23,173 nucleotides of DNA from a virus: positions 1 through 23,173 of IMG/VR virus record IMGVR_UViG_3300033155_000751. The stretch is one strand, 5' to 3'. Positions 1-15,899 of this stretch are shown piece after piece. The translations under genes were made by a program, and so were the position numbers. Position 1 is the stretch's first letter; every line of letters starts with the position of its first letter. Below the pieces are notes generated by a model, which saw only the letters and a program-made list of their open reading frames with translations, did no database searches and was not told the origin of the DNA.

Positions 1-3000
1 CTTTACTTCTTCTTTAGTTACAAGGTAATTGGTTGTTTTCTGAATCTGATTTTTACCTTCTTGTGTAGAGGCATCTACTTTTTCTTTAGTAATAGCCTCC
101 CACGCAATACTAAGTTGACGTTCATACTCTTCTCGTGCTGCCTGTATCTCTTCTTCTAACCTTTGTCTACCACCTACTATAATCTCCTCTAATGAATTAT
201 TTACATCACTTAGCTCCTGCACCTTGTTGATGTCAGAATTCTCCATTAGAGACGCGTTATTTAGCTTCATAACTGTTTCTAATACCCCCATTCTTTTTAT
301 TTGAGCGTCAGTAGGATTGATTTCTTTGGATAACTCATTGTATTCATCAGCTAATCTAGCATTGGTTTCATAAATTTCTTTAGGTGTAGCTATCTGAGAC
401 ACTCTTTCTTTCTTAATCATTTTAATTTGCTCTATAGCATCTGCATCTATTTTAGTAGCTTTATTTCTACCACTTAACTTAACCTCATTCTTAGCGTTAA
501 GTTTAGTGTTTATATCTTTTTCTAAAGAGGTTGCGACTTTTTCATTTGTAAAATCAATTACTTCATTCATTATGTTCTTAATACTTGAACGGTTAGCAGC
601 CTCAATTTTACCCACCATTTTTAATACTTCCGGTTTAGTGTAAGTAGTTGCCGGTAAAGCTTTACGCATAAAGTTTCGGAGGTCCTGCTTAAAGGCTTGT
701 AAGCTCTTCTCTCCTTTCTCTACCCCCTTAATAAATCTTTTAGACTCTCTTAGAACTTTAGCCATATCTCTAGTAGGTCTCATCCCTAACGTGGACTGTA
801 ACTCTACTTGCATCTTAGCTTGTAATGGAGATAATTCTTTTTTACTTCCCTCTCGTGTAAACTCAGGTTGCTGCTCTAAATATTGAATTACTTTATCAGT
901 AATCTGCTCTTGGGTTAATTTCTTTTTAGCTTGTTTATTTCGTGCTACTAAAGAGTCTTTGTATTTATTTACTCTTTTAAATAATCTAACCCCGGACTCT
1001 ATACCTCCCTTTAATTCTGCAAAACTTTTAGGTAACAAAGTCGTTTCATCTATACTAATCTCCAAAGCTTTCTTCACTTCAGCGGGTTTAAATTTTTTAA
1101 TTCTTACAAGGTAATCTGTAATTTCTAAATCACTAAAGTTATTCTCTCTTGCTTTTTGAACTATATCTATTATCTCGGAGTTTCGTTCTTCCGGAGACTC
1201 AGCTTTAGATTCTTTATCCATCTTCCTCTCACTTATCTCAAATCTAGATTCACGAGGATTAACCTCTCCCACTACTTCAATTATACTTTTATCTATAGGG
1301 ATAATATTCATTTCATTCTCCCTGTTAGTATAGATGTCAGTTAAATTATCTACGTGAGTTATAATAGTATCATATCCTTTCTCTTTTAATTCAAATACTT
1401 CTGCATCTGACCATACTTTATTTTTCTTTACAAAGTAAGGGTTCTTAATATTAAGCTTGACTTTATATTTTTTACTAGCACCTTTTCCTCTACCTAAATC
1501 AGAGAATTTTTTACGTGAAGGAGTGAAAAATGTAAGGTTACCCGGCTTAGGGTGGTAAGCTCCTTTATATAGTTGAGTGGCTTCTCCTTTCCCCTTTTCA
1601 ATTGGTTTAATATTAACTCCTGCTGCATCTTTAGTGTTATGAAAAAATCCTATCTGCACTCCATCTACTACATTAATATCCTCTTCCTCATTATAAAATG
1701 TATCTTGTGTATCTTCAACTTCAGTAGGAGTGTCTTCAATGACACTATCCGGTTCTTTGTAGGTAGGGGTTTTAGTGGTTTTTTTTCTTACAACTTCATC
1801 CACCCCTAATAAGTCTTTAACACTTTCCTCTACATCTGTTTCTACTCCTTCTACAACTAATTCTTTACCCGGAATCCTTTGTCCCCTTTCGAGTGCAGCA
1901 AGTTCTAATTCTAAGGATTCTAAAATAACTAACTCATCTGCCGTCATATTCTCTACACCACCGGCTTTCTCCTTCATTTCTTCTATCTTGTTTCTATACC
2001 TTTCTCTATCCACTTTCTCCCCTGCTCTTGCTTCTTTTCTTTTTGCTTCTTGCTCAGGAGATAAACTCATTGCTTCTGACACATCTTCTGTAGTAATAGT
2101 TTCACCTGTTCTCATTTTGTCAGCCATACTATTTAAGGCATCAACAATAACATCATCAGGAGCTTTCTTGTAGATTCTATCTATATATTTACCGAGTCCT
2201 AATTTATTTAAAACCCATTCTATAAATTGACGAACTTTACTTTTTGCTTCTTTAGGTAGCTTAGGATATCGAGTTGCTATTAAAGCTATTGCTTCAACCA
2301 CAAACTCTTCGTTTTTAACACTTTGTTTTACCCCTTCATACTTGTCTACGTGTCCCTGTAATTCCTTTATAAAAGAGTCGTTTTCATTAAGCTCTGTTTG
2401 TATGTTGCCCGCTTCTTGAGGATTAGCCTTTTTTAAATCGCTAGCTAATTTAACATTTCTCTTTTTAACTATTCTTATAATAGCTTCTGCTAATTCTTTA
2501 GTTTTAAGTTCTTTACCCGCGAGGTCAGGAAATAAGTTCTTCAACACACCGTGCATTACTTCGTGCGGAACTACCGATGGATTTGTTTTTTCTAGGCTTA
2601 TAGATATATTATTAGTTAAAGGACTAAAGTTTCCACTACTATCACGGGAGTTTCCTGCCGCCATATATTCCTTATGCGTTTCATACATTAACAAGTTTAC
2701 ATTAGGAGCTATTTTCTTTATAGACCTAAAAGCTTTCTCGGCTGCTTTTATAGTTCTTTGTCTAGCAATAGGGTCGGGGTTTGAAAAAGAAGTACGCTCA
2801 CCCGGTTGTAAACTCTCATCTATTAAATAAATATTTCTACCCAATGACCTACCTTTTACTACTTTAGTGGATTTCATTTGCACATCCACACCACCATCTT
2901 TCCTCTTCGGTACTACTAGAACTCCTAATGTACCCGGTCCTTCCGGGTTAATAGTAACAGGAGAACTTTTTCCTGCCACAAACCTAGATGGTTTAGTAGT

Positions 3001-6000
3001 AGGTTCAGGCGCTCCTTTGATTTGAGATTTAAAAATAGTCTCCAACTCTTTAGCTTCATTATAAATAGCAGCTTGCCTTTTCTCCGTATCAGTTTTAGGA
3101 TTATCAAAATCAATATTAAGACCTTCTAAAGACTTAATAAGGTCTTGAGTTCTATTTAAATCATTTTGTAAAACATTAGGAGAATCACTATCTATTCTTT
3201 GCAAAGGGTCAAGACGTGAACCTCTTGTACCTTTTTTAGTGTCCTCCTCAAAGAAGCTTTCAATATCTGTTTTACCCTCCGGTTTACTTGTATATTTATC
3301 TACTATACTTTTAATATCCCCATCAATTTGTCTTAACCTAAGTTTAGCGGTATAAGTATCATTACCTTCTAACTTTTTTCTTTCAAGTTCTAAATCAATA
3401 AGAGCGTTTCTGTCTTCGGGATTTTTTATCAAAGGGTCTATATTTTTATCTACTTCATACCTTTGTATAGCATTATCTCTTTTATTTTGGGTATACCTTT
3501 TTAACTTAGGGTTACCATCTATCCCTATAGTCGCTGAAGCTACTTGTTTTGGTGTACCTTTAGTTACAAAATCTACCATATCTTCAGGACTAACCTGCTG
3601 ACCATTTAATTTATAGGTACCCGGTAATAATCTATTAGATGTTCCACCGGTCATATCTCCATCGAAAAAATCTTGCATCTCTGAATCCACATCATCAACA
3701 CCTCCTTTTCTAGAATCCGCTAAAGCTATTGCTACATCTACCGGCGCTCCTGCAACTCCCGCCACACCTTCTAATAAAACATCAGACGCGCTAATACCAT
3801 CACCTGCGGCTACTTGAGCAGCGAACTCTCCCCCTGCTCCACCTACTGATTCTATACCCATACCTACCGCAGCAGCTAATAAAGGTTTACCTCCTAATGA
3901 TTTTATCGCCATTCCACCAAAACCTGCCGTTAGAGTATCGAACCCACCTATTATCATACCTCTACCTATAGCTTCACGCCTCATATCTGAAAGAGCGTCA
4001 GGGTCATTTAATACTTTACGAATAGCTTCATCACTCATATCCCCCCCGGTCTTTTCGTTTAACAACTCCATAAAGGTCATAGTCGCCTCTATACTACCAC
4101 TCATCACACCTACAGCCGCCATCAATCCCGCCGGAACTCCTAGAGCAGCACCTCCCGCTGCACCTGCGGGTCCCCCTGCTACTGCACCTCCCGCGGTAGA
4201 GGCTGCCCACACACTCCCCAAGGTTTGTGCTCCTATTTCTAAAGTGGTCATATTTAAATATGAACCTACACTTTCCGCAAGAACCATAGTTGCAACAGAT
4301 GGATATTTATATAACGCTTTCGCGGCGCAAGCAAAATCTCCTCCACATTCTGCCACCTCTTTATTATACAACTTTAATTCATCAGGCATACCACTAGCTT
4401 TTATAGCTTCCCAATTACCTAATAAATCTTTCATTTCACCTTCGGTAATATTAGCTCCTTCCCACATAACATTTAACACATCATCCTGCATAGCACCTTT
4501 AGTTTGTCCTACTTGAAATGTTTGATAAACATCATTAAAGAAATCCATAAAAGCACCTTCCCCTTGCACCCATTCTTCGGAGACAATAGGTCTTAAATTT
4601 AACTCCTCTTGAATACCTAAAAGCTTTGCGTCTTGTTGTGTTAATCTATCTTGTTCTGTTATTAACTCATTCCTCATAGGAATAATCTTATCCCTCATCT
4701 CTATATATTCATCAGAACCCATTTTACTTCTAGGGGTTTTACTTACCACCTCATTTATCTTATCGTATTCTGATACTTGTTTTTTAAAATCTTGTGCTTC
4801 TCTTTGGTGCTTTTTCCAATCTTTCAAAAACTGAGCATCTTGTGAGTCTTGAAATTTTTGCTCCCCCGGAACTCTTGTTTGTCTATGTTTGTTAAAAAAA
4901 TTTATAGCCTGTTGAGCATTTTGTGCTGAGGAATTAGTATTTCCCATTACCCAAGTCTCTCCCTCTAACCAAGAACCACCCTCATCTCTATCTACTGAAA
5001 GGGTAATACTCTCGCCATTAGCGGCTGTTATTTCTATATAATCTTTACCAATCTTCCTTTGCCCTACTTCAAAACCGTATTCCTTAAACATTTGCTCTAA
5101 CAAGGGAGCTGCCACTTCCTCTTGTTGGTCGAACAACCAAGTCATATTTTCTAAATTAGTTAAGTTCTTCCACTCTGTTTGCTCGTGTTCATTAAGAGCC
5201 TGTATCATATCTTGGGCAGTCAACCCAAGTGTTGAAGGGTCTACTTTAAAATAGGAATAATAAGCTCTAGATAAATCATCTTCATTTACTAACCCATACT
5301 TAGCTCTATCTTCCGCACTCAAATGTGAATAATCCCCTTTACTCTCGGTAAATCTAAGGTCATCTAATTCTTGATACTGTTCTCTATCAATTAAAGTATA
5401 CCTACCATTTTTGGCATCATAATAGGTAGCATACGCCTCAGCTTGGGTCATATCCGATGGAGCAGGGGTACCTGTATCTTTTTCAAACTGTTGTCTCCAA
5501 TCTGTAGACGGTGTGTAAGAGTTGGCTGATGTTATTACTTGACCACTATTATTAGTGTTAGACCAAGTATATTCATTGTTTATTATCTGAGGGGTAATAC
5601 CTAATTCATAAGCACTTCTTATATCATAGTATGCAGGAACATTTTCTAGAGGAGCATCAAGAGTAGGTTCTACTCCATATTTATTTAAATAATCTTCTTT
5701 CCACGCAACTACTTCAGGGTTAGTAGTCCACCAATCATTAAACCCTTGTTCATCAAAAGTAGAAACATAATCCTCAGAACGAGGTTTGTAGTAGTCACTA
5801 TCTACGTTTGATGAGTCCCAAAAAGTAGTTGCCGAATCTGATTCCATAATGTCTTCTTGAGAAGTGGAATCCGAATCGAGGTTTTTTTTTTTATCTACCG
5901 GAAAAAAATCAGCTTCAAAATATTCAAACGTACCCGTAGGTTTTTCAAAAACCTCCCACGGTTGTTTCCCTTCGTCTTCAGCTTGTTGTAAAAGTTTCTG

Positions 6001-6174
6001 TTCTTTTCTTTTTATCCAATCAAAAAGTTCTTTTCTATATGCAGCATCACGACGTATCTTATCCTCCCATCCTTGTAAGGTGGTGTTATTAGCAAATTGC
6101 TCATCATATTGAGATACCCAATTATAAATATAGTTACTATGTTCTTCTAATATACGTTGTTCTCTTTCGTCCAT
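1..6174 (-). CDS. giant virion cargo / polyvalent protein with zincin and ART-like domains (3' end beyond window)
   Basis: Likely a capsid-packaged protein ejected into the host with the DNA. I read the frame from ATG at 6174 codon by codon: it stays open for 2,058 codons and has no stop before the window edge. Visible layout: a charged N-terminal region (1-600) that I do not recognise; a Gly/Ala-rich, hydrophobic, membrane-like stretch (about 619-818); a zinc metallopeptidase-like region with HEVMH at 1204-1208 and a candidate third ligand E1294 in EEFVVEA; a charged helical linker; an ADP-ribosyltransferase-like segment (about 1508-1637) with FFHNT (H1512), NLTFFTPS and NENEMNIIPID (E1621); then a long Lys/Glu-rich, probably coiled-coil tail. 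It starts 15 bases after the 672-residue cargo gene, with an A/T-rich leader and no Shine-Dalgarno. Large multidomain proteins of this kind are known in phages as polyvalent proteins. No DxDGD RNA polymerase motif was seen in the visible part. The domain calls are inferred from motifs. Confidence 0.85.
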   Translation of the reverse strand, partial: MDEREQRILEEHSNYIYNWVSQYDEQFANNTTLQGWEDKIRRDAAYRKELFDWIKRKEQKLLQQAEDEGKQPWEVFEKPTGTFEYFEADFFPVDKKKNLDSDSTSQEDIMESDSATTFWDSSNVDSDYYKPRSEDYVSTFDEQGFNDWWTTNPEVVAWKEDYLNKYGVEPTLDAPLENVPAYYDIRSAYELGITPQIINNEYTWSNTNNSGQVITSANSYTPSTDWRQQFEKDTGTPAPSDMTQAEAYATYYDAKNGRYTLIDREQYQELDDLRFTESKGDYSHLSAEDRAKYGLVNEDDLSRAYYSYFKVDPSTLGLTAQDMIQALNEHEQTEWKNLTNLENMTWLFDQQEEVAAPLLEQMFKEYGFEVGQRKIGKDYIEITAANGESITLSVDRDEGGSWLEGETWVMGNTNSSAQNAQQAINFFNKHRQTRVPGEQKFQDSQDAQFLKDWKKHQREAQDFKKQVSEYDKINEVVSKTPRSKMGSDEYIEMRDKIIPMRNELITEQDRLTQQDAKLLGIQEELNLRPIVSEEWVQGEGAFMDFFNDVYQTFQVGQTKGAMQDDVLNVMWEGANITEGEMKDLLGNWEAIKASGMPDELKLYNKEVAECGGDFACAAKALYKYPSVATMVLAESVGSYLNMTTLEIGAQTLGSVWAASTAGGAVAGGPAGAAGGAALGVPAGLMAAVGVMSGSIEATMTFMELLNEKTGGDMSDEAIRKVLNDPDALSDMRREAIGRGMIIGGFDTLTAGFGGMAIKSLGGKPLLAAAVGMGIESVGGAGGEFAAQVAAGDGISASDVLLEGVAGVAGAPVDVAIALADSRKGGVDDVDSEMQDFFDGDMTGGTSNRLLPGTYKLNGQQVSPEDMVDFVTKGTPKQVASATIGIDGNPKLKRYTQNKRDNAIQRYEVDKNIDPLIKNPEDRNALIDLELERKKLEGNDTYTAKLRLRQIDGDIKSIVDKYTSKPEGKTDIESFFEEDTKKGTRGSRLDPLQRIDSDSPNVLQNDLNRTQDLIKSLEGLNIDFDNPKTDTEKRQAAIYNEAKELETIFKSQIKGAPEPTTKPSRFVAGKSSPVTINPEGPGTLGVLVVPKRKDGGVDVQMKSTKVVKGRSLGRNIYLIDESLQPGERTSFSNPDPIARQRTIKAAEKAFRSIKKIAPNVNLLMYETHKEYMAAGNSRDSSGNFSPLTNNISISLEKTNPSVVPHEVMHGVLKNLFPDLAGKELKTKELAEAIIRIVKKRNVKLASDLKKANPQEAGNIQTELNENDSFIKELQGHVDKYEGVKQSVKNEEFVVEAIALIATRYPKLPKEAKSKVRQFIEWVLNKLGLGKYIDRIYKKAPDDVIVDALNSMADKMRTGETITTEDVSEAMSLSPEQEAKRKEARAGEKVDRERYRNKIEEMKEKAGGVENMTADELVILESLELELAALERGQRIPGKELVVEGVETDVEESVKDLLGVDEVVRKKTTKTPTYKEPDSVIEDTPTEVEDTQDTFYNEEEDINVVDGVQIGFFHNTKDAAGVNIKPIEKGKGEATQLYKGAYHPKPGNLTFFTPSRKKFSDLGRGKGASKKYKVKLNIKNPYFVKKNKVWSDAEVFELKEKGYDTIITHVDNLTDIYTNRENEMNIIPIDKSIIEVVGEVNPRESRFEISERKMDKESKAESPEERNSEIIDIVQKARENNFSDLEITDYLVRIKKFKPAEVKKALEISIDETTLLPKSFAELKGGIESGVRLFKRVNKYKDSLVARNKQAKKKLTQEQITDKVIQYLEQQPEFTREGSKKELSPLQAKMQVELQSTLGMRPTRDMAKVLRESKRFIKGVEKGEKSLQAFKQDLRNFMRKALPATTYTKPEVLKMVGKIEAANRSSIKNIMNEVIDFTNEKVATSLEKDINTKLNAKNEVKLSGRNKATKIDADAIEQIKMIKKERVSQIATPKEIYETNARLADEYNELSKEINPTDAQIKRMGVLETVMKLNNASLMENSDINKVQELSDVNNSLEEIIVGGRQRLEEEIQAAREEYERQLSIAWEAITKEKVDASTQEGKNQIQKTTNYLVTKEEVK
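5882..5892 (-). other. A11 homopolymer inside the giant gene
   Basis: On the coding strand, eleven A follow codon 94 (GAT). In the zero frame this reads AAA AAA AAA AAC, so it contains the slippery heptamer A AAA AAC. A -1 shift would reach a TAG about 30 codons later and give a product of roughly 130 residues. Whether slippage happens is not shown by the sequence; the zero frame is fully open on both sides. Confidence 0.5.
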
Positions 6175-6189
6175 TTTTTATATATTTTT

Positions 6190-8208
6190 TTACATTGGAG
6201 CATCATCACTCTCATCATCATCATTATTCGTGTTTTGAGATTGAGTAGGTACTTTTAATATCTTATTCATATAATTAGATAATTCCTGTTGTAAACTCTT
6301 ACCTCTATATGTTTTACTCTCTAGGTCAAGAGCTATAGTTGTTCCATTAATTACATTTCCGTTTTCATCTTGTAATCCTAAGTAAATAACCCTCTCATCT
6401 GTATTAGGCATTATCCTTATATTATCTTCAGTTAAACCTACATTATTATTTTGTATACCTTTTAGGAAAATTTCTTCTATTAAATCAGTTACCGCAGGTA
6501 CGTACTTATCCCAATTTTTAATCTCATCCGTATAGAATCTTTCTAAATTATTAAAAGCGCTACCTACAGTCACATTCTGAACATCGTAATCTTCAAATAA
6601 CTCGTTAAACGCAGCTAGTATACCCTGTGATGTCTCAAGAGGCATCATAGAATTAACACCTATTGCCTCTTTCTTCGGTTCCGGTTGTTGTCTATTAACA
6701 ACAATCTCTTTTTGGTTATCAAAGGTAGTTAAACTACCCACCACTCTCTCAGGATTAAGTTTTTTAAACACCTCCATAGCCATAGCGTAATTATCGAAAC
6801 CACCTAATTTAGAAGCTACTGCTTTTAAGAAACTTTCTTCTGTCCATTCTTCACCACCTTCAGTCCCATCTATAACTCCGGCTGTCCATAAAGGTATAAC
6901 CTGTTCGTCAACCATTCCTTTATTAATTATAATCTCCTCATTATTTCTTGTAATATTTTTAATCCATTCGTTACCCGGTAGGTCCATTAATCCTATCATT
7001 GTAGATTCCATATCTTGCTCTTCACCACTAAATATATCTAATAAGTTAGTAAGTAAAGCTTGGTCTTGCTCACTTTTTTTATCTGCCATATACTCCCATT
7101 GTGATGGGGAGAACTCAGTTTTTGTAGTAACACTTCTATTAACCATAACATCAAGTCTGTCTTTAGTTATCTGTCTAGCCATCTCTAACTGCTCGTCGGT
7201 TAACTGAGGAACTAACCTTCCTGAATTAGGTTGGTTAGGGTCTTGTACTCTTAAAATCATTGATTGATTTCTTGACCCATCTGCATTAAATAAACGAGGG
7301 TCATTAGGGTCTGAAGTAAAATCAAACTCTTCTCCGGCATTATCAAATCCCTCTAAAACCTCATTTTGCGAATCAGTCAATATACTTACGGCATTCATAG
7401 AATTCTTATCTCCGACCGTAGAGTTTATAATAGTAGTTTCAGCCTCAGTATAATTACCATTTTCTCTGATATCATTTACACTTTGTGTGGGGTCATCTTC
7501 TCTTAATTTTTCGTAAGTATCAGCTAACATTTGAGCGGATTCATCTAAATTTACCTCTAAATCAAATGGTTTAAGTAATTGGTCGTGCCTATTATTTAAC
7601 TCCTGAAGTGGTCGTAAACTATTTTCATTAGGAACAACTACCGTAGTATAAGGGTTTGTTTGAGGGTCGTAAGGTTCATCAGGGTTTGTAAGTTGTCTTT
7701 CACCTATACTAACCTGACCATCAACAGGATTAATATATAAAGAGTGATTTGTAAAATTACCCATCTTTTCATTATCCATTAATATGCTCTGTGAAAACTC
7801 GGATAATTCACCCTCATCTAACATTTTTTTAGCTTCAGCATAAGTAGTGTTCCAATTCTCAGATACTTCATAGAACTCTTTCGTACCATTCATTATGTTA
7901 GCACGTTGAATATTATAATCTTTTAAACTTAATTTCCCTTCTTTTAATAATTGATTTTGAATACGCATAGTCTCCATAACTTTCTCCGCATAATCTAAAA
8001 CAAACTCATCTTTACCTACGTGTTGTCCTTGTGGAGCGTTCTCTACATACTTTAAACTTTCTTCTTGTTGTTGTTCAATTTTTTGTTTTTTCTTTCTACG
8101 AGCTATCTGTTCAGCGCTTAGAACATCGTTCATATTCTTGGCAACTTCCGACCAATCTATCCGATTCTCAGCATCTCTTTCCGCGTATTTATAAAATGTT
8201 TTTGCCAT
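6190..8208 (-). CDS. crAss-like cargo / internal virion protein, 672 aa
   Basis: The N-terminus MAKTFYKYAERDAENRIDW and the following segment (YNIQRANIMNGTKEFYEVS, then a SLYINPVDGQVSIGE stretch) match my memory of a conserved structural protein encoded just after the tail genes in crAss-like phages, where large packaged cargo proteins lie. The protein is acidic, mostly helical in appearance, Asn/Glu/Gln-rich, has no signal peptide or membrane segment, and ends in a very acidic tail (NNDDDESDDAPM). The ATG start is supported by the family-like N-terminus. It lies 10 bases after the gp14-like gene and 15 bases before the giant gene, so the three probably form one ejected-protein set. Its biochemical role is unknown; a capsid-internal or ejection role is inferred from position and family resemblance. 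Confidence 0.82.
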   Translation of the reverse strand: MAKTFYKYAERDAENRIDWSEVAKNMNDVLSAEQIARRKKKQKIEQQQEESLKYVENAPQGQHVGKDEFVLDYAEKVMETMRIQNQLLKEGKLSLKDYNIQRANIMNGTKEFYEVSENWNTTYAEAKKMLDEGELSEFSQSILMDNEKMGNFTNHSLYINPVDGQVSIGERQLTNPDEPYDPQTNPYTTVVVPNENSLRPLQELNNRHDQLLKPFDLEVNLDESAQMLADTYEKLREDDPTQSVNDIRENGNYTEAETTIINSTVGDKNSMNAVSILTDSQNEVLEGFDNAGEEFDFTSDPNDPRLFNADGSRNQSMILRVQDPNQPNSGRLVPQLTDEQLEMARQITKDRLDVMVNRSVTTKTEFSPSQWEYMADKKSEQDQALLTNLLDIFSGEEQDMESTMIGLMDLPGNEWIKNITRNNEEIIINKGMVDEQVIPLWTAGVIDGTEGGEEWTEESFLKAVASKLGGFDNYAMAMEVFKKLNPERVVGSLTTFDNQKEIVVNRQQPEPKKEAIGVNSMMPLETSQGILAAFNELFEDYDVQNVTVGSAFNNLERFYTDEIKNWDKYVPAVTDLIEEIFLKGIQNNNVGLTEDNIRIMPNTDERVIYLGLQDENGNVINGTTIALDLESKTYRGKSLQQELSNYMNKILKVPTQSQNTNNDDDESDDAPM

Positions 8209-8218
8209 ACTTTAAATT

Positions 8219-8905
8219 TTATTGTATAGGTGTGTCATTTGTAGGTGGTGGTGGATTTACTACTGCTGCCATATCAGGGTTACCTATAGCTGTATAATAA
8301 GCAGCTAATTCAGCAGGGTCCATACTTTTATCTTTAAATGGACTACCATATAAAGGTAATGCACTTGCCGCTTGTCCTACTAAACTTGTTACTCCTGCCA
8401 TACCTTGTTGTAGAGACTGATTCCGATTTTCTTCTGCATCCCTAGCGGCTAATTGAGCACCCTGAGCTTCAGCTAAATCTAAGTTTGACTGCTGCCCAAT
8501 TATAGATTTATCTTCATCCAATATAGTTCTTTGAATTGCCTCTAACTTTTTAGTCTGCCTATCAGTTACATCTGATTGCGCTTTATTTTGTGCTTGTAAA
8601 ACTTTCCCCGCTATTGTACCTGCTCCCCTCTCCTCTCCTTCTTTCGCTGCCTCTAAACTTTGTGCGCCGGCGCTCAACATAGCATCTCTTTCTTTATCAA
8701 AAGCAGCCATATCAACAGACAGTTTCTCGTATACATTTACATCTAATCTTTTACGAGCTTTTAATATAGCTTGTTTAGCATCTTTTTCTGCTCTTTGTTG
8801 TGCTCTTTTTTGTTTAGATGCTTGAGCAAAAGATGCTGCTGTAGTACCTATTGTAGTTGCTACTTGAGCTGCTGTTAAAACTGCTGCGGTTGTTGCTAAT
8901 GCCAT
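8219..8905 (-). CDS. small Ala-rich internal virion protein (T7 gp14-like), 228 aa
   Basis: An Ala/Gln/Lys-rich, largely helical protein. Residues 1-30 are hydrophobic and small-residue rich (ATTAAVLTAAQVATTIG). Residues about 32-160 look like a long amphipathic or coiled-coil region (KQKRAQQRAEKDAKQAIL). A second hydrophobic Gly/Ala patch lies near 168-187 (GMAGVTSLVGQAASALPLYG), and the tail is Pro-rich (NPPPPTNDTP). This composition and its place directly before larger cargo genes fit the small internal virion proteins of podoviruses, such as T7 gp14, which insert into the outer membrane during DNA ejection. The function is inferred by analogy. The ATG is separated from the GNAT stop by one base (TAA T ATG), which suggests translational coupling. 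Confidence 0.72.
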   Translation of the reverse strand: MALATTAAVLTAAQVATTIGTTAASFAQASKQKRAQQRAEKDAKQAILKARKRLDVNVYEKLSVDMAAFDKERDAMLSAGAQSLEAAKEGEERGAGTIAGKVLQAQNKAQSDVTDRQTKKLEAIQRTILDEDKSIIGQQSNLDLAEAQGAQLAARDAEENRNQSLQQGMAGVTSLVGQAASALPLYGSPFKDKSMDPAELAAYYTAIGNPDMAAVVNPPPPTNDTPIQ

Positions 8906-8906
8906 A

Positions 8907-9317
8907 TTATAGTTTTTTAATCATTTCTTTAGTATAAGAATCTCCTTGCGTGTAACCAACTTTCTCATACGTTTCTATTAAGCCGTCGTGTTTTAATAAA
9001 GCATAGGTATAATTACTACCTAAATCTTTACAAATATTGGTTAGGCTTTTTATAAGTAACTCTAAAGCTTCTTTTCTTTCAGGGTTTTTCCGATAATTTT
9101 TATTAGAGATAACCCATTCCACTAATGCTACTTTAGAATTAGTCATATAAATAAATCCTGCACACACAGGAGTTTCTTTATCCAATACCATAAGTCCACC
9201 TTTTCCATTATCAGGTAAAAAATCCTTTAATGGAGCTTCCCATCCCCAATCTTTCCACCACCCTAAAAGGGTGTTATCGTAATCATCTTTGTGCAGTGGT
9301 CTTAAATTAAATATCAT
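8907..9317 (-). CDS. GNAT-family N-acetyltransferase-like protein, 136 aa
   Basis: A short protein with the outline of a GNAT acyltransferase. It has an N-terminal strand (FNLRPLHKDDYDNTLLGWWKD), a central pair of strands (GFIYMTNSKVALVEWVISN), a helix rich in charged residues (about 82-96, KEALELLIKSLTNICKDLG), and a C-terminal GLIETYEKVGYTQGD segment typical of motif B. The acetyl-CoA-binding RxxGxG loop is not canonical here (NKNYRKNPERKEA), so activity or CoA binding is uncertain. Similar small acetyltransferase-like genes are known from tail regions of marine phages. It has a promoter-like element directly upstream and heads the cargo unit. A structural or virion-modifying role is possible; the substrate is unknown. 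Confidence 0.75.
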   Translation of the reverse strand: MIFNLRPLHKDDYDNTLLGWWKDWGWEAPLKDFLPDNGKGGLMVLDKETPVCAGFIYMTNSKVALVEWVISNKNYRKNPERKEALELLIKSLTNICKDLGSNYTYALLKHDGLIETYEKVGYTQGDSYTKEMIKKL

Positions 9318-11123: not shown

Positions 11124-11141
11124 AATTTTAATTTTTTAACA
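11113..11141 (-). repeat. junction repeat, copy A (end of muzzle gene / start of 319-aa gene)
   Basis: A 29-base partner of the repeat at 10140-10169. It covers the terminal Cys codon TGT, TAA, an A/T-rich leader and ATG GCA TAT AA. Both upstream genes end in Cys and both downstream genes start MAY, so the identity covers two coding ends as well as the spacer. Confidence 0.7.
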
Positions 11142-14100
11142 TCCACAATCTGTGACTGTACTTGATACTACTGTGCTTGCATTAAGAACTGTAAATGAAG
11201 TTCCTTGATACGCACATATTTTTACTTTCCCTCCCTCTGCTAAAAGTGTTTGAACCGTACCCCCTGCGCAATTTACAAACTCAATAATACTTGCAGGTCC
11301 TGAGTTCCATATTATACTATATTCTGTACATTGAGTATCACAATCTACACACTCACAGCACGCAGCTTGTTTATCAGCGGTAGCTCCTGCTCCCGTTAAA
11401 GTGTAACACAACCACGTGTCTACCGCATTTCTATAATCATATACCAAATATAAGTAATCATTTGCTGCTCCCGCAGGCATTGTGAAATCGGCTGAATATT
11501 GAGCAGGAGCTAATATAGAATTAATAGCTAAGGGTCCGGAAGATGCGCCTGCCGCAGAAATAGCTGTCATTAAATTAGTCATACCGGTTGGAGTGTTAGG
11601 GTATAATGTAGCAGTTCTTAATTGATAAAATTCATCCGCCGTATCAATAAACACAAAATTATCCGCTCCTAAAACTCGAGAATACACGGTAACAGTAGAC
11701 CCATCTAGAGGTATACCTGCTTGACCTTGTAACCCATTAAATGTTTGATATTGTGAAATAAGAGGATTGTCTGTACCTGATGCAAAAGTAACAGGTGCTG
11801 ATGCATTGGTAGGAACGAAAGCTGTTGGAACTCCCGTTACCGCATCTGTCCAATTAACTTGATTGTGTATAGTTTTAGTAGCATCTACATCATCTGTTAA
11901 ACAAACTAATACTACCGTTAAAGCGCTTGGTGTAGGACATCCCACTGTTAAATCAAAACTTGGTGTTGTACCACCACTAGATGCACCATCTATTTGTAAT
12001 GTAGTTGGAAAAGCTGAGGTCTTTCCTGTAAAAGTATAACTTCCCGATGTACTTATAGGAGCTCCCGGTATAGGAGTTACTGTTGAGTTATAAGTTATCG
12101 TACCTGCCCAAGAACCTGCATTAACCATTTGCCAAGAAATAGTAATAGGACCTATTGCTTCACCCACATCCATACAATAACTAAAAGGATTATTAAATCT
12201 TGTATCTACCGTATATTGAAGTCCGCATTGTAAACAAATTTCAGGAGCAGGTATTGCTATATCATTAATACTTAATACATATTCATTCATATAAGGGTCA
12301 AATGCTCCAAGCTTTTGTTTACCCACATAAGTAGGGTTTATAAATTGGTCTCTGAAATAAGAACGCATCCCTTGCTCTGATATAACAGTAAGCTGTTCAT
12401 TTTGCATAGCAGAGCCTTTTAATTGTAACACAGCTCCTCTTTTTTCATCAGTAAAAAACTTATCTACTCCATATTGCGTATAACTTTCAGGGTTTCTACT
12501 AATACCATATTCTTCTACCCTTGCTACTTGTTGACCTAAAACTGTAGGCGTAGAAGTTAATGCACCTCCTCCTCCTGCATCTGTTAATAAATCTTTTCCT
12601 GTTAAGACATAAGATATTTTATCTTCTTGTAAAACTAATATATCTGTTTTTCTACCATCCAATTTCATTATCTCTCCATAAGAATCTTCTAATGGTTTAA
12701 AATTTAATAACCCTAAATTAAATTCATTTAGCTTATTAACATTACTTTCATCATTAATAACTCCACTATATGTTAAGTCTGAAAATCTGTCTGCCTCTCC
12801 CGCATCTTGTGCCTGTGTAGAATAAGCTCTATTACCTAATGAAAAAGTCTTACCTTTCATAGAGTCTTTTATTCTATAACTTTCTACACCATTACCAAAA
12901 GCGTAACAATTAAAGAATTGAGAATAAATAATTCCTGCTATCCCTCCTGCTATATTTTGGTCAGTGTTGCCTACATATCTTGTAGTATTACCTAAATGAT
13001 TACCGGTAGCTCTATCAATAGGATAAGAAGCTTCTCCTTCGTACCATAAATCAGGTAAGGCATCTCCCGGTTCTGTTTCAAAAACCAATACATTATCTGC
13101 TTGATAAATTTCAAATGTAGCATCCACAGTAGACCTTCTTTTTTTACTTAGTTTAGCACTAGCACAAGCTTGCGTACCTGAAACAAAAAGTCTTAAACCA
13201 AATGCAGCACCCCCATCCCACCATTGTAAATAATTAGTACACAAGTTACAATTGTTATTTACAAAATTCGTGGTTGCTGCCGAGAGATTAGCTCCCACTA
13301 ACAAAGCGGGATTGTAAGAATTTACCATAGGACACCCTGTACCCCCTATTTCATAATAATCAAAAGCTATATCAGGGTCAGGATTACATACTGAAGCCGC
13401 TATATTTTCACCGTCCCACCAATCTTTAGCATTACTATAATCTTGGGTAGCTGTAAAAAATCTATCAATCTTCCCTATTCTTCTTTCACACGATTTATTT
13501 CCATCACCTGAACCTCTTCTTTTCCATCTTAATCTTACTCTAATACGAGAACCCGCAGGTATTAATATAAAAGAATCTGCCGGCATAACTGCATTAAACC
13601 CATTGTTATTTATCTTCATATAAACCCCCGCAAATGGAACTAAACCACTTATTGTATCAGGGGAAAGTCCACCATCTATACTTAAAAAGTTTCTTTGTTG
13701 AGCTTCCTTTTCTAAGACTGTTATAGTTACACAGCTTGAAATAGGTCCATCTATATCACTCTTTAATATTAATGAATCTCCTTCCGTAACTTTAGCTGCA
13801 TTCTCTCCTTCAAGTAAAACATAACTGTAATTAGTAGTTTGAGATGTATATACTATATTACTAAAAATAGTATTAAAACCTAACATATCCGGTTTAGCCA
13901 CAAACTTATATCTATACGCCCACCCCGGAGCTCTTTGTGTAGTTGGTATTGTAACCTTTATTCTGTTTTGGTCAGCCGAGTTTTCACAAGGAACGTGTAT
14001 AGTATTACTCTCACTAACTATTGCTTGAGTAGAACGATTAAATTCATCCATATAAACAATACCTAATTCATATCCTCTATTACTATGTAAACTTCTAGGA

Positions 14101-15899
14101 ATATTTAAAGACCTAAAAGTAGGCTCTATTTGAGTTGGTCTATAATAATTATAAACATCTCCCATAGTAGGTGTGTTTAAATAAGGTATTGCAGGTCTAG
14201 GGTCTACACCATTATCTATATACCTAATAGCAGGGAAAATTATTTTAAATTCATCAGGCGATGTAGCGGCTGCTGATATTTGTATGCCTTGATTTAAAAC
14301 TGTAACACCACTTTGATATCTATACAGAGTAGGGTTAAGAGGGACTCCGGGAGCTACTTGAGTTGCAGCAATAGAAGTAGCTACTGTACAATTATACCTA
14401 TCACTCAATGTAGGGGTAGACGCACACGTAACCGCAAGAGGATTAATAAAAGTAGCAGAACCTACTGCTGCGTTAAATTCTACACTAGAGGCTAAACCAA
14501 AACCATTGGTGTAATCTTGTGGTAATGTAAATGCTAATGTTACGTACACATCGTCAACGGGAGCAATTGCTGTTACAGCAGGAGCAGTGGCAGTAAATGA
14601 ATCGTGAACTAATCTTACCCCTATTACTAACACTGATTGAGCCGCTAATGTTAACCCTGCTGTACTTATAGTAATCTCCGCATCATTTACCGTGTTTGTA
14701 CCGTTAACCGTATAAGTAAAATTTGCTAAACTAAAATCTAATTCAGTTTCATCTATAGGTGTACTTACAAGTGAAGTAACATAAGAAACATCTACTTTAT
14801 CTCCATCAGTATCTAATAAGTCATAATTTTCTGTATAGTTACCATATATTAATCTATTACCCATTATTGTCTGAGCTTTAGCTAACTTAGGAACATTGTC
14901 ATATAATCTTAATATTTCCGACTCAACTAAAACAGTATATATTTTACTGTTGTCAAAGAAATAGGTATAAACTGTATTATCTAAATAACCTACTTCAATT
15001 TTATTTAACCCTTCAATTTTTTTAATCGTACTATTGTCAGCTTCTTTAAATAATAAATCTACTTCTTTAACTAATTCATTTCCGGAATTAAAACTAATAG
15101 TAGCCGCATTATTAATGTTTACCATACCTCCATTTAAAAAACTATCAGGACTAAATTGAAAGTTATTAGGAACAAATGCAGGTGCACTAAATTGAGAAGT
15201 AGCTGAATATTCTCCATCCTCATACTTGTATCTATATGCGAAACAAATAAATCTTCCTTCCATAAAATTTTCCTGACCTGTAGTGGAGGATGTTACAACC
15301 TCGGGAGATTCTGTGGGTGGTTTTTTTATTACAAGTAATTCTTCGGCTGTTATTTGGTCTACGTTACCCGGTTGTGTAGGGTAAGCATAACTTCTTGTAA
15401 CATTAATTTTCCTTGGAGGATTAAAGTCATCTGTCCAAAATAACATATTATCCACTAAATTTACTCCTGTTATTAAATACGTAGGATTAAAATTTAATGT
15501 ATTAGGACCCCCTGTACCAATACTAACCACGTGATAAGTTAAAGTAGCATTAACAGAGTTATATGATACTATCATATCAAGCGTATACGTTACTCCACTT
15601 AAAATAAAAGCGGGGTCGTGCACAAACCAATATAGTGTATTATTTGAAGAATCTTCATAAGCTCCAATACACTTAGTAGAGGTGCTTAAAGGTGTGTTAG
15701 CCGCATCAATATAGGTAAGGGTGGTTAATTGCTCATTACCTTTTGCGTTTTCTACAGAGCCTATTTCGGTATCTTCGGTAGAACCTAAACGTACATTTTG
15801 CCCATCTACATATTCTCCTTCAGGAAGAAGTCGCTCATCTATAGCTTTATTCATTCTTCCCTTGACAAAACTTCTTATTATTCTAGTTGATTCTGCCAT
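11136..15899 (-). CDS. giant muzzle / tail stabilisation protein, 1587 aa
   Basis: Likely the protein forming the distal nozzle (muzzle) of the short crAss-like tail. Family-like segments run in order: KGRMNKAIDERLLPEGEY and GQNVRLGSTEDTEIGS (about 13-45), FNPPRKINV (near 160), FAYRYKYEDGEYSATSQFS (near 220), KAQTIMGNRLIYGNY (near 340), SLHSNRGYELGIVYMDEFNR (near 605), LVLQEDKISYVLTGKDLL (near 1090), NPESYTQYGVDKFFTDEKRG (near 1130) and FDPYMNEYVLSIND (near 1200). The family pattern then stops. Residues about 1210-1505 look like beta-sandwich modules, followed by a Cys-rich tail (ACCECVDCDTQC near 1512, a YSIIWNSGPASIIEFVNC module, final DCGC). A Cys-containing stretch near 720-925 may be an extra insertion. 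It starts one base after the ring 2 stop (TAA G ATG). The C-terminal part may bind a host receptor, which is inference. Confidence 0.85.
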   Translation of the reverse strand: MAESTRIIRSFVKGRMNKAIDERLLPEGEYVDGQNVRLGSTEDTEIGSVENAKGNEQLTTLTYIDAANTPLSTSTKCIGAYEDSSNNTLYWFVHDPAFILSGVTYTLDMIVSYNSVNATLTYHVVSIGTGGPNTLNFNPTYLITGVNLVDNMLFWTDDFNPPRKINVTRSYAYPTQPGNVDQITAEELLVIKKPPTESPEVVTSSTTGQENFMEGRFICFAYRYKYEDGEYSATSQFSAPAFVPNNFQFSPDSFLNGGMVNINNAATISFNSGNELVKEVDLLFKEADNSTIKKIEGLNKIEVGYLDNTVYTYFFDNSKIYTVLVESEILRLYDNVPKLAKAQTIMGNRLIYGNYTENYDLLDTDGDKVDVSYVTSLVSTPIDETELDFSLANFTYTVNGTNTVNDAEITISTAGLTLAAQSVLVIGVRLVHDSFTATAPAVTAIAPVDDVYVTLAFTLPQDYTNGFGLASSVEFNAAVGSATFINPLAVTCASTPTLSDRYNCTVATSIAATQVAPGVPLNPTLYRYQSGVTVLNQGIQISAAATSPDEFKIIFPAIRYIDNGVDPRPAIPYLNTPTMGDVYNYYRPTQIEPTFRSLNIPRSLHSNRGYELGIVYMDEFNRSTQAIVSESNTIHVPCENSADQNRIKVTIPTTQRAPGWAYRYKFVAKPDMLGFNTIFSNIVYTSQTTNYSYVLLEGENAAKVTEGDSLILKSDIDGPISSCVTITVLEKEAQQRNFLSIDGGLSPDTISGLVPFAGVYMKINNNGFNAVMPADSFILIPAGSRIRVRLRWKRRGSGDGNKSCERRIGKIDRFFTATQDYSNAKDWWDGENIAASVCNPDPDIAFDYYEIGGTGCPMVNSYNPALLVGANLSAATTNFVNNNCNLCTNYLQWWDGGAAFGLRLFVSGTQACASAKLSKKRRSTVDATFEIYQADNVLVFETEPGDALPDLWYEGEASYPIDRATGNHLGNTTRYVGNTDQNIAGGIAGIIYSQFFNCYAFGNGVESYRIKDSMKGKTFSLGNRAYSTQAQDAGEADRFSDLTYSGVINDESNVNKLNEFNLGLLNFKPLEDSYGEIMKLDGRKTDILVLQEDKISYVLTGKDLLTDAGGGGALTSTPTVLGQQVARVEEYGISRNPESYTQYGVDKFFTDEKRGAVLQLKGSAMQNEQLTVISEQGMRSYFRDQFINPTYVGKQKLGAFDPYMNEYVLSINDIAIPAPEICLQCGLQYTVDTRFNNPFSYCMDVGEAIGPITISWQMVNAGSWAGTITYNSTVTPIPGAPISTSGSYTFTGKTSAFPTTLQIDGASSGGTTPSFDLTVGCPTPSALTVVLVCLTDDVDATKTIHNQVNWTDAVTGVPTAFVPTNASAPVTFASGTDNPLISQYQTFNGLQGQAGIPLDGSTVTVYSRVLGADNFVFIDTADEFYQLRTATLYPNTPTGMTNLMTAISAAGASSGPLAINSILAPAQYSADFTMPAGAANDYLYLVYDYRNAVDTWLCYTLTGAGATADKQAACCECVDCDTQCTEYSIIWNSGPASIIEFVNCAGGTVQTLLAEGGKVKICAYQGTSFTVLNASTVVSSTVTDCGC

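What the first reader, a model, noticed from the sequence alone, without database searches (positions are those of the whole stretch)
1..6174. A virion-cargo-type protein of more than 2,058 residues combining membrane-like, protease-like and ART-like modules
The longest gene in the window has no stop in its frame and is cut off by the left edge. It lies at the end of the cargo gene set and carries a Gly/Ala-rich region, an HEVMH zincin motif and an ART-like segment. Gut crAss-like phages are known to package giant proteins, including RNA polymerase subunits, in this position. Here a multi-effector polyvalent protein appears to be injected with the DNA, a potential early host-takeover system.
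Basis: partly seen in the sequence, partly recalled or inferred. Interest (0 to 1): 0.7.

Follow-up and report, generated by a model that had tools for sequence, protein, structure and literature searches.

The report
Phage ejection protein with swappable cargo
A very large protein that a bacterial virus probably packs in its shell and pushes into the host ahead of its DNA carries a protease-like part and a slot in which related viruses keep different enzyme parts, here one resembling an ADP-ribosyltransferase.

Summary
Window 1-6174 (-) is one open frame cut by the left edge. An overlapping contig (L002, 99.9-100% identical) gives the whole protein: 2,824 aa. It ends a late module, after 228-aa and 672-aa genes, in the T7 gp14-gp15-gp16 / N4 gp52-gp51-gp50 order. 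The phage resembles Pachyviridae/Pervagoviridae/Elemovirus, not gut crAss-like phages. In two cultured relatives the three positional equivalents are recorded as virion proteins from MS/MS, but those giants show no detectable C-terminal similarity to this one. The zincin is well supported: HExxH and a distal Glu are invariant in 17 of 17 relatives. The ART-like module is probable, not proven: Pfam ART-PolyVal 14.3 bits, cut-off 31.2. The C-terminal ~700 residues form an all-helical module (AF2 pLDDT 83.6) whose only long PDB alignments are to phage core proteins (Z 6-7, not decisive alone). Between zincin and C-terminal part lies a slot of 0-1,702 aa, exchanged between close relatives; some carry ART-PolyVal or DNA methylase domains there. 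Best reading: a gp16/vRNAP-type ejection protein with swappable effector cargo, a new variant of known polyvalent ejection proteins. Injection and host takeover remain inferred.

The parts
1..6174 (-). 5' 2,058 codons of a 2,824-aa giant ejection-type protein; the 3' 766 codons lie outside the window (L002:16175-18472)
   Evidence: open frame; complete copy in overlapping contig L002
5182..6174 (-). N-terminal region, residues 1-331, little shared with other giants
   Evidence: module profiles match only this protein; blastp of 1-331 hits L101 at 1e-8, otherwise only E >= 0.7
4630..5181 (-). module N3, residues 332-515, shared
   Evidence: profile: 20 of 48 giants, 43 of 79
3562..4581 (-). Gly/Ala-rich, weakly hydrophobic module, residues 532-871; matches phrog_32588
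   Evidence: 16 of 48 giants; 14 of 79
2047..2916 (-). zincin-type metallopeptidase domain, residues 1087-1376
   Evidence: profile in 22 of 48 and 68 of 79 giants; AF2 model and fold matches
2551..2565 (-). HEVMH, residues 1204-1208; the candidate third zinc ligand Glu1290 is at 2305-2307
   Evidence: both His, Glu1205 and Glu1290 invariant in 17 of 17 aligned relatives
1255..1707 (-). ART-like module, residues 1490-1640, in the variable slot between zincin and module H1
   Evidence: PF18760 at 1306-1533, 14.3 bits, E 7.7e-4, below cut-off; own ART profile best stretch 1544-1608
205..1188 (-). module H1, residues 1663-1990
   Evidence: profile in 18 of 48 and 74 of 79 giants
6190..8208 (-). 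672-aa protein, position of T7 gp15 / N4 gp51
   Evidence: synteny in all 42 (of 51) related loci that reach a giant ORF; phi18:3 and phi40:1 equivalents recorded from MS/MS
8219..8905 (-). 228-aa protein with hydrophobic N-terminus, position of T7 gp14 / N4 gp52; matches a 'virion structural protein' PHROG
   Evidence: phrog_13764, 4.3e-11; synteny; top hydropathy at residues 1-19
8907..9317 (-). 136-aa conserved gene before the trio, probable GNAT acetyltransferase
   Evidence: phrog_17252 (function unknown), 2.3e-37; bait for 51 loci; the gene in the same place in MW202828 is annotated 'N-terminal acetyltransferase complex subunit'

Best explanation
The giant is the third ejection (internal virion) protein of a short-tailed phage of Bacteroidota (host inferred from relatives), the equivalent in place and layout of T7 gp16 and N4 gp50. 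It is stored in the capsid with the 228- and 672-aa proteins and leaves through the tail before the DNA. The small and middle proteins form the channel across the outer membrane and periplasm. The giant's helical C-terminal module acts at the inner end of that channel, and its Gly/Ala segment inserts in the host membrane. The N-terminal and slot modules are payload for the host cell. The zincin cleaves the chain, its own or a host protein, to free the payload; here the payload includes an ART-like module that would modify host proteins at the start of infection. Shown here: gene order, module anatomy, conservation of the zincin residues, slot exchange between relatives, predicted fold of the C-terminal module. 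Recorded by others for positional equivalents: presence in virions. Inferred: ejection, membrane insertion, cleavage, ADP-ribosylation.
For: Trio order small-middle-giant in all 42 (of 51) loci that reach a giant ORF and in public phage records, as in N4 gp52-51-50 (150-644-3,500 aa) and in the T7 family (PMC8954989 section 4). MS/MS notes for the three equivalents in phi18:3 and phi40:1. C-terminal AF2 model pLDDT 83.6, pTM 0.82, all helical. Among the 50 PDB rows shown, the only alignments over 102 residues are three phage core-protein chains: 9jyy_I (T7) Z 6.6, 5.3 A, 207 aligned; 9vvp_L (phage E1004) Z 6.6, 5.0 A, 204; 7eyb_I Z 6.1, 5.1 A, 184. The same fold occurs in viral giants, several named polyvalent or ART-PolyVal (76 matches at E <= 0.001, 50 seen). 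Zincin; Foldseek best hit collagenase H peptidase domain 1.5e-3; PPEP-1 Z 5.7, 3.8 A, 139 aligned, and lethal-factor chains Z ~5; the zincin profile's best place in N4 vRNAP is the HELVH, E 0.0097 though hhalign probability only 4%. Slot exchange: 183 of 233 pairs, against 0 of 239 for H1 and 0 of 234 for H2.
Against: The MS-verified giants (phi18:3, phi40:1) have no detectable match to the C-terminal module, so packaging is argued by position. Z 6-7 is within the range that unrelated helical models reach (note), and Foldseek found no PDB match at E <= 0.001 for CT or for the zincin-ART model. In one search the top rows by Z (up to 6.6) are unrelated helical proteins, above the metallopeptidases. 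ART is below the curated cut-off and its AF2 segment was under pLDDT 50 for most of its length. No lytic transglycosylase family was found. CT shows no similarity to N4 vRNAP (E 0.23) and no sequence relative in the PDB (best E 0.031, a chance-level coiled helix). A hydrophobic segment in the C-terminal part was found in only 5 of 19 giants scanned.
Confidence: 0.7

Rival explanations
1. Ejection protein without host effectors: the zincin opens peptidoglycan peptide cross-links during entry, replacing the T7 gp16 transglycosylase, and the ART-like segment is a decayed or structural insert.
For: No transglycosylase or lysozyme family in the protein at E <= 1; zincin more conserved than the slot; the L158 ART-like segment lacks a recognisable N-terminal half.
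Against: Slots of some relatives hold intact non-envelope enzymes: ART-PolyVal 64.9 bits in L121, DNA methylase in L137 and L163. Polyvalent zincins are discussed as processing or effector peptidases in PMC5512222 (passages).
Confidence: 0.15
2. Assembly protein: the giant is made late and its zincin matures head or core proteins; it is not a delivered effector.
For: Late operon position; phage P1 DdrB is processed before packaging (PMC5512222, passages).
Against: Positional equivalents are recorded in virions; swappable enzyme domains of host- or DNA-directed kinds.
Confidence: 0.1
3. A virion RNA polymerase or its subunit, as in crAss-like or N4-like phages.
For: Same layout as N4 gp50; zincins are fused to or annotated with such polymerases.
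Against: No RNA polymerase family at E <= 1 in the 2,824 aa; no DxDGD, DFDGD or DFDID string.
Confidence: 0.05

Closest known systems
T7 gp16 (with gp14, gp15), podovirus ejection proteins
   Same: Third, largest gene of the trio; one hydrophobic segment near the C-terminus; C-terminal module's only long PDB alignments are to phage core proteins
   Different: 2,824 aa against 609-1,337 listed in PMC8954989; no transglycosylase found; zincin and variable slot instead
N4 virion RNA polymerase gp50 (Schitoviridae)
   Same: Trio order and sizes; predicted N-terminal membrane part, zincin-type HExxH, large helical C-terminus (PMC12633501 passages)
   Different: No polymerase found; C-terminal similarity not detected
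Polyvalent proteins (Iyer et al. 2017, PMC5512222)
   Same: Zincin as commonest domain; ART and methylase modules in giant phage proteins beside virion genes
   Different: Here one conserved helical C-terminal module with a defined exchange slot; that paper's main text has no hit for 'Cellulophaga'
phi18:3 gp123 and phi40:1 gp101 (Pachyviridae, Pervagoviridae)
   Same: Same position, recorded as MS/MS-detected structural proteins
   Different: 1,935 and 1,691 aa; no HExxH, no detectable CT match; in phi18:3 a 103-aa gene lies between the middle and the giant gene
crAss-like cargo proteins
   Same: Giant virion cargo (PMC10172136 passages); one ART-bearing crAssphage protein is annotated 'RNAP associated protein fused to zincin protease'
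   Different: Different phage group; no RNAP part found here

Membership tests
Podovirus ejection protein, gp16 type | last and largest of a gp14-gp15-gp16-like gene trio | tested here: met
Podovirus ejection protein, gp16 type | present in virions | not testable with these tools
   recorded only for positional equivalents in phi18:3 and phi40:1
Podovirus ejection protein, gp16 type | putative transmembrane helices in the C-terminal part | tested here: inconclusive
   19-residue mean hydropathy 1.81 at 2615-2633 in this protein; of 19 giants scanned at cut-off 1.6 a segment in the C-terminal part was found in this one, L041, L024, L043 and Manatee only
Podovirus ejection protein, gp16 type | fold of the C-terminal part | tested here: inconclusive
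   9jyy_I Z 6.6, 5.3 A, 207 aligned; 9vvp_L Z 6.6, 5.0 A, 204; 7eyb_I Z 6.1, 5.1 A, 184; Foldseek none at E <= 0.001. That 9jyy_I is gp16 is inferred from residue numbers up to 1,272 and PMC11784390; that 7eyb is T7 is recalled
Polyvalent protein | zincin-type MPTase with HExxH and distal Glu | tested here: met
Polyvalent protein | two or more domains of unrelated activity | tested here: inconclusive
   zincin met; ART below curated cut-off (14.3 of 31.2 bits)
Polyvalent protein | encoded by a portal-terminase phage among virion genes | tested here: met
   portal, capsid and tail matches; terminase annotated in relatives
ART-PolyVal (PF18760) | score over curated cut-off | tested here: not met
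   14.3 bits, model 32-98 of 140
N4-type virion RNA polymerase | single-subunit RNA polymerase domain | tested here: not met
   no such Pfam family at E <= 1 in the full protein
Crassvirales | capsid and tail proteins nearest to Crassvirales | tested here: not met
   tallies of all 85 and 87 matched records hold no crAss-named phage, although crAss records are in the collection

The most novel reading that the evidence does not exclude
These phages use a standing delivery chassis: a gp16-like ejection module whose upstream zincin releases whatever enzyme sits in an adjacent, rapidly exchanged cargo slot (ART, DNA methylase, others) into the host cytoplasm. The ejectosome itself would then be a natural, reloadable protein-injection system in a wide group of Bacteroidota phages.
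Probability: 0.35. Interest if true: 0.75.

Novelty: new variant of a known kind. Interest (0 to 1): 0.55.

Why it matters
Giant virion proteins are often left as 'structural protein' or 'hypothetical protein' in the records seen here. In this set 105 giants can be read as one conserved C-terminal module plus interchangeable parts (a few are two contigs of one phage). That links the T7/N4 ejectosome to the polyvalent-effector idea and gives a direct test: does the zincin cut at the slot? It also marks where to look in a relative for new early-infection enzymes.

Tried and rejected
crAss-like or RNAP cargo: rejected on nearest relatives and absence of polymerase families. Pfam and PHROGs on the single protein gave only phrog_32588 over the Gly/Ala region. 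LPD38 (PF18857) as the C-terminal module: no match in 10 records, but nothing rang in the controls either, so inconclusive. PDB sequence search with CT and zincin profiles: nothing significant. ART by direct alignment with L121/L117: pairwise hhalign weak (E 0.13 and 0.0055, probabilities under 7%) and the MAFFT alignment misleading. Search for further ART relatives: only L158; one phage hit at E 0.9 happens to be annotated ADP-ribosyltransferase, not counted as evidence. CT against N4 gp50: none.

Caveats on counts: module profiles were iterated, so their E-values include members by construction; the control with reversed sequences was run only for the C-terminal profile (best E 0.26). The 79 loci were fished with CT (82 found, 80 kept, one of them the window's own contig, left out), so CT and H2 counts there are by construction; L096, L115 and L135 are contigs already seen as L041, L022 and L016. 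The 239 pairs come from 61 related giants and are not independent; having H1 was a condition of entry, so its 0 of 239 is partly by construction; zincin coverage fell under half in 45 of 239 pairs. In one search, 490 of 500 shuffles gave a score, the best 6.5 bits against 8.1; the 13 ART segments were found by tblastn with the L121 segment or are L121 and L117 themselves, and were not each checked against Pfam.
Full report
WHAT IS THERE. The left 6,174 bases hold one open frame on the minus strand, without stop, from an ATG at 6174 off the left edge. A second contig of nearly the same phage (IMGVR_UViG_3300033142_000339; blocks of 13,570 bases at 99.9% and 2,513 at 100%) contains the whole gene: 2,824 aa, with a stop. 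HEVMH occurs once, at 1204-1208, against 0.014 HExxH expected by composition.

WHICH PHAGE. Portal, major-capsid-type and tail-type structural genes run in order to the right of the giant. tblastn of the 1,587-aa tail-type protein and of the 493-aa capsid-type protein match 87 and 85 phage records: Flavobacterium elemo phages, Cellulophaga phages, Tenacibaculum (Gundel; tail-type only), one Maribacter phage and one Manatee Spring podovirus. These are Pachyviridae, Pervagoviridae, Elemovirus or unclassified. NCBI taxonomy places Pachyviridae outside Crassvirales.

THE TRIO. Next to the giant lie a 672-aa gene, a 228-aa gene and a 136-aa gene. Using the 136-aa protein as bait gave 51 loci. In the 42 where the DNA reaches an ORF of 800 aa or more, the order is always a 133-140-aa gene, 220-301 aa, 473-680 aa, giant; the other 9 end too early. 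This is the order of T7 gp14-gp15-gp16 (PMC8954989, section 4 read) and of N4 gp52-gp51-gp50 (150, 644, 3,500 aa). The N4 abstract gives gp51 the outer-membrane and gp52 the tunnel role (passages), so which of the two smaller proteins does what here is open. I did not see the paper behind those notes.

MODULES. I collected 48 giants (this one, 41 from the bait loci, 6 from public phage records) and ran profiles of pieces of this protein over them with iteration: N3 in 20, Gly/Ala in 16, zincin in 22, H1 in 18, C-terminal module CT in 28 of 48. Of the 36 giants complete at the C-terminus, 25 have CT and 11 do not, including elemo, phi18:3, phi40:1 and Panino; a wider CT profile did not change that. 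An alignment of four CT sequences then brought 80 viral loci (82 found, 80 kept). In the 79 other than the window's own contig the order N3 / Gly-Ala, zincin, slot, H1, H2, CT is kept wherever the parts are found (N3 43, Gly/Ala 14, zincin 68, H1 74 of 79; several are cut at the 5' end).

ZINCIN. In 17 aligned sequences, the others 12-27% identical to this one, both His and the Glu of HExxH and one Glu 86 residues after the first His (Glu1290) are invariant. HExxH is present in 65 of the 68 zincin-bearing loci; L149 has only a fragment, and L150 and L155 lack it. The AF2 model shows an N-terminal helix, short strands, the HExxH helix and further helices, pLDDT mostly 67-90. Foldseek's first hit is the collagenase H peptidase domain (E 1.5e-3, probability 0.96, TM 0.18-0.25 over the whole model). 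The VIA list contains PPEP-1 (Z 5.7, 3.8 A, 139 aligned) and lethal-factor chains (Z about 5) over model residues ~37-254, but its top rows (Z up to 6.6) are unrelated helical proteins. The zincin profile's best place in the 3,500-aa N4 vRNAP is its HELVH (E 0.0097, hhalign probability 4%), which falls in the C1 domain described in PMC12633501 (passages).

ART-LIKE MODULE. Between zincin and H1 this protein has 286 residues. PF18760 (ART-PolyVal) matches there with 14.3 bits, E 7.7e-4 for the record, under the cut-off of 31.2; the same search (E <= 10) rang below cut-off in 2 of 14 control genomes. A profile that I built from 13 phage ART segments gives its best stretch in this protein at 1544-1608, 8.1 bits; the best of 490 scored shuffles (500 made) is 6.5. 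The shared features are FFT, LNIKNP and GYD; FFHNT upstream could stand for the YHGT of the family (read by eye). L158 has a related segment (39% over 94 aa) but before its zincin. My estimate for an ART-like fold is about 0.6, for activity lower.

THE SLOT. In 83 giants with both zincin and H1 the distance ranges from none to 1,702 aa; 13 have 11 aa or fewer, 66 have 80 or more. Among 239 pairs whose CT is 55-95% identical, 233 have a slot to compare and in 183 the longer slot is covered less than half by the other. The same test gives 0 of 239 for H1, 0 of 234 for H2 and 45 of 239 for the zincin. L030 and L032 are 93% identical in CT but have slots of 366 and 82 aa. Pfam on 45 of the 49 de-duplicated slots matched 47 families at E <= 0.1 (25 shown), among them ART-PolyVal (4.9e-17, one member), N6_N4 DNA methylase (5.1e-21, two), Phage_L5_gp82 (4.8e-8, five), LPD23 and DUF3293. 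Of 48 records searched, ART-PolyVal is over cut-off in the giant frame of L121 (in the slot) and L117 (before the zincin), and DNA methylase in L137 and L163 (in the slot by coordinates).

C-TERMINAL MODULE. Residues 2059-2770 with 57 relatives fold at pLDDT 83.6, pTM 0.82, all helical. Foldseek finds no PDB match at E <= 0.001. In the VIA second look, among the 50 rows shown, the only ones with more than 102 aligned residues are phage core proteins: T7 9jyy_I (Z 6.6, 207), phage E1004 9vvp_L (Z 6.6, 204) and 7eyb_I (Z 6.1, 184). Residue numbers up to 1,272 fit gp16 (1,318 aa) and not gp15 (747 aa; sizes recalled); PMC11784390 (passages) reports 9JYY and a gp16 ring in the mature core. In viral predicted structures 76 models match at E <= 0.001; several of the 50 shown are named ART-PolyVal, large polyvalent protein or PolyVal ADP-ribosyltransferase. 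So the fold is not confined to this group. Z of 6-7 alone would not prove kinship; together with gene order it makes it likely.

MECHANISM. Shown: anatomy, synteny, conserved catalytic residues, cargo exchange. Taken from papers: T7 gp14/15/16 form the channel; N4 gp50 is ejected and stays with the ejectosome; polyvalent zincins may process their own chain. Inferred: that this giant leaves the capsid before DNA, that its C-terminal module docks at the inner membrane, that the zincin frees the slot cargo, and that the ART-like part modifies host proteins.

NOVELTY. Polyvalent proteins, a zincin in N4 vRNAP and mosaic ejection proteins are known. The listings of my paper searches (9 to 20 titles each) showed no paper that by title or abstract start joins a gp16-like module with an exchange slot in this group; subscription papers are mostly not in that library. 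Hence: new variant of a known kind.

Noticed in passing
L121 slot (residues ~1748-1967), L117 (~832-967): ART-PolyVal domains over Pfam cut-off inside relatives' giants, once in the slot and once before the zincin.
   Followed up: partly
L137 and L163 giants: DNA methylase (N6_N4_Mtase) domains in the giant frame, possibly for protection of entering DNA.
   Followed up: partly
members of alignment A1 (22 giants): One member matches Ribosomal_S30AE, a hibernation-factor family by name (2.4e-5), and one matches GNAT (0.0018); the members were not identified.
   Followed up: no
elemo, phi18:3, phi40:1, Panino, L014, L039, L042, L043, L048, L050, L057: Eleven giants complete at the C-terminus, in the same position, have no detectable CT match: a second type of C-terminus or extreme divergence.
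   Followed up: partly
L002:18362-18472: The last ~37 residues are an acidic Asp/Glu-Phe run (FDIDFGFDEKFNFDEQFDFDF), while several relatives end in a basic or Gly-rich tail.
   Followed up: no
window 11136-15899 against L002 177-5039: The tail-type protein is 1,587 aa in the window and 1,620 aa in the overlapping contig, a difference of 33 residues in nearly identical DNA.
   Followed up: no
window 8907-9317: A probable acetyltransferase of about 136 aa sits just before the ejection genes in all 42 (of 51) baited loci that reach the giant; its role there is unexplained.
   Followed up: no
slots of L016, L022, L024, L026 and many others: 55 of the 66 slots of 80 aa or more fall in one blastp-linked cluster, so one or more recurrent domains of unknown kind fill most slots; this protein's slot is outside it.
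   Followed up: no
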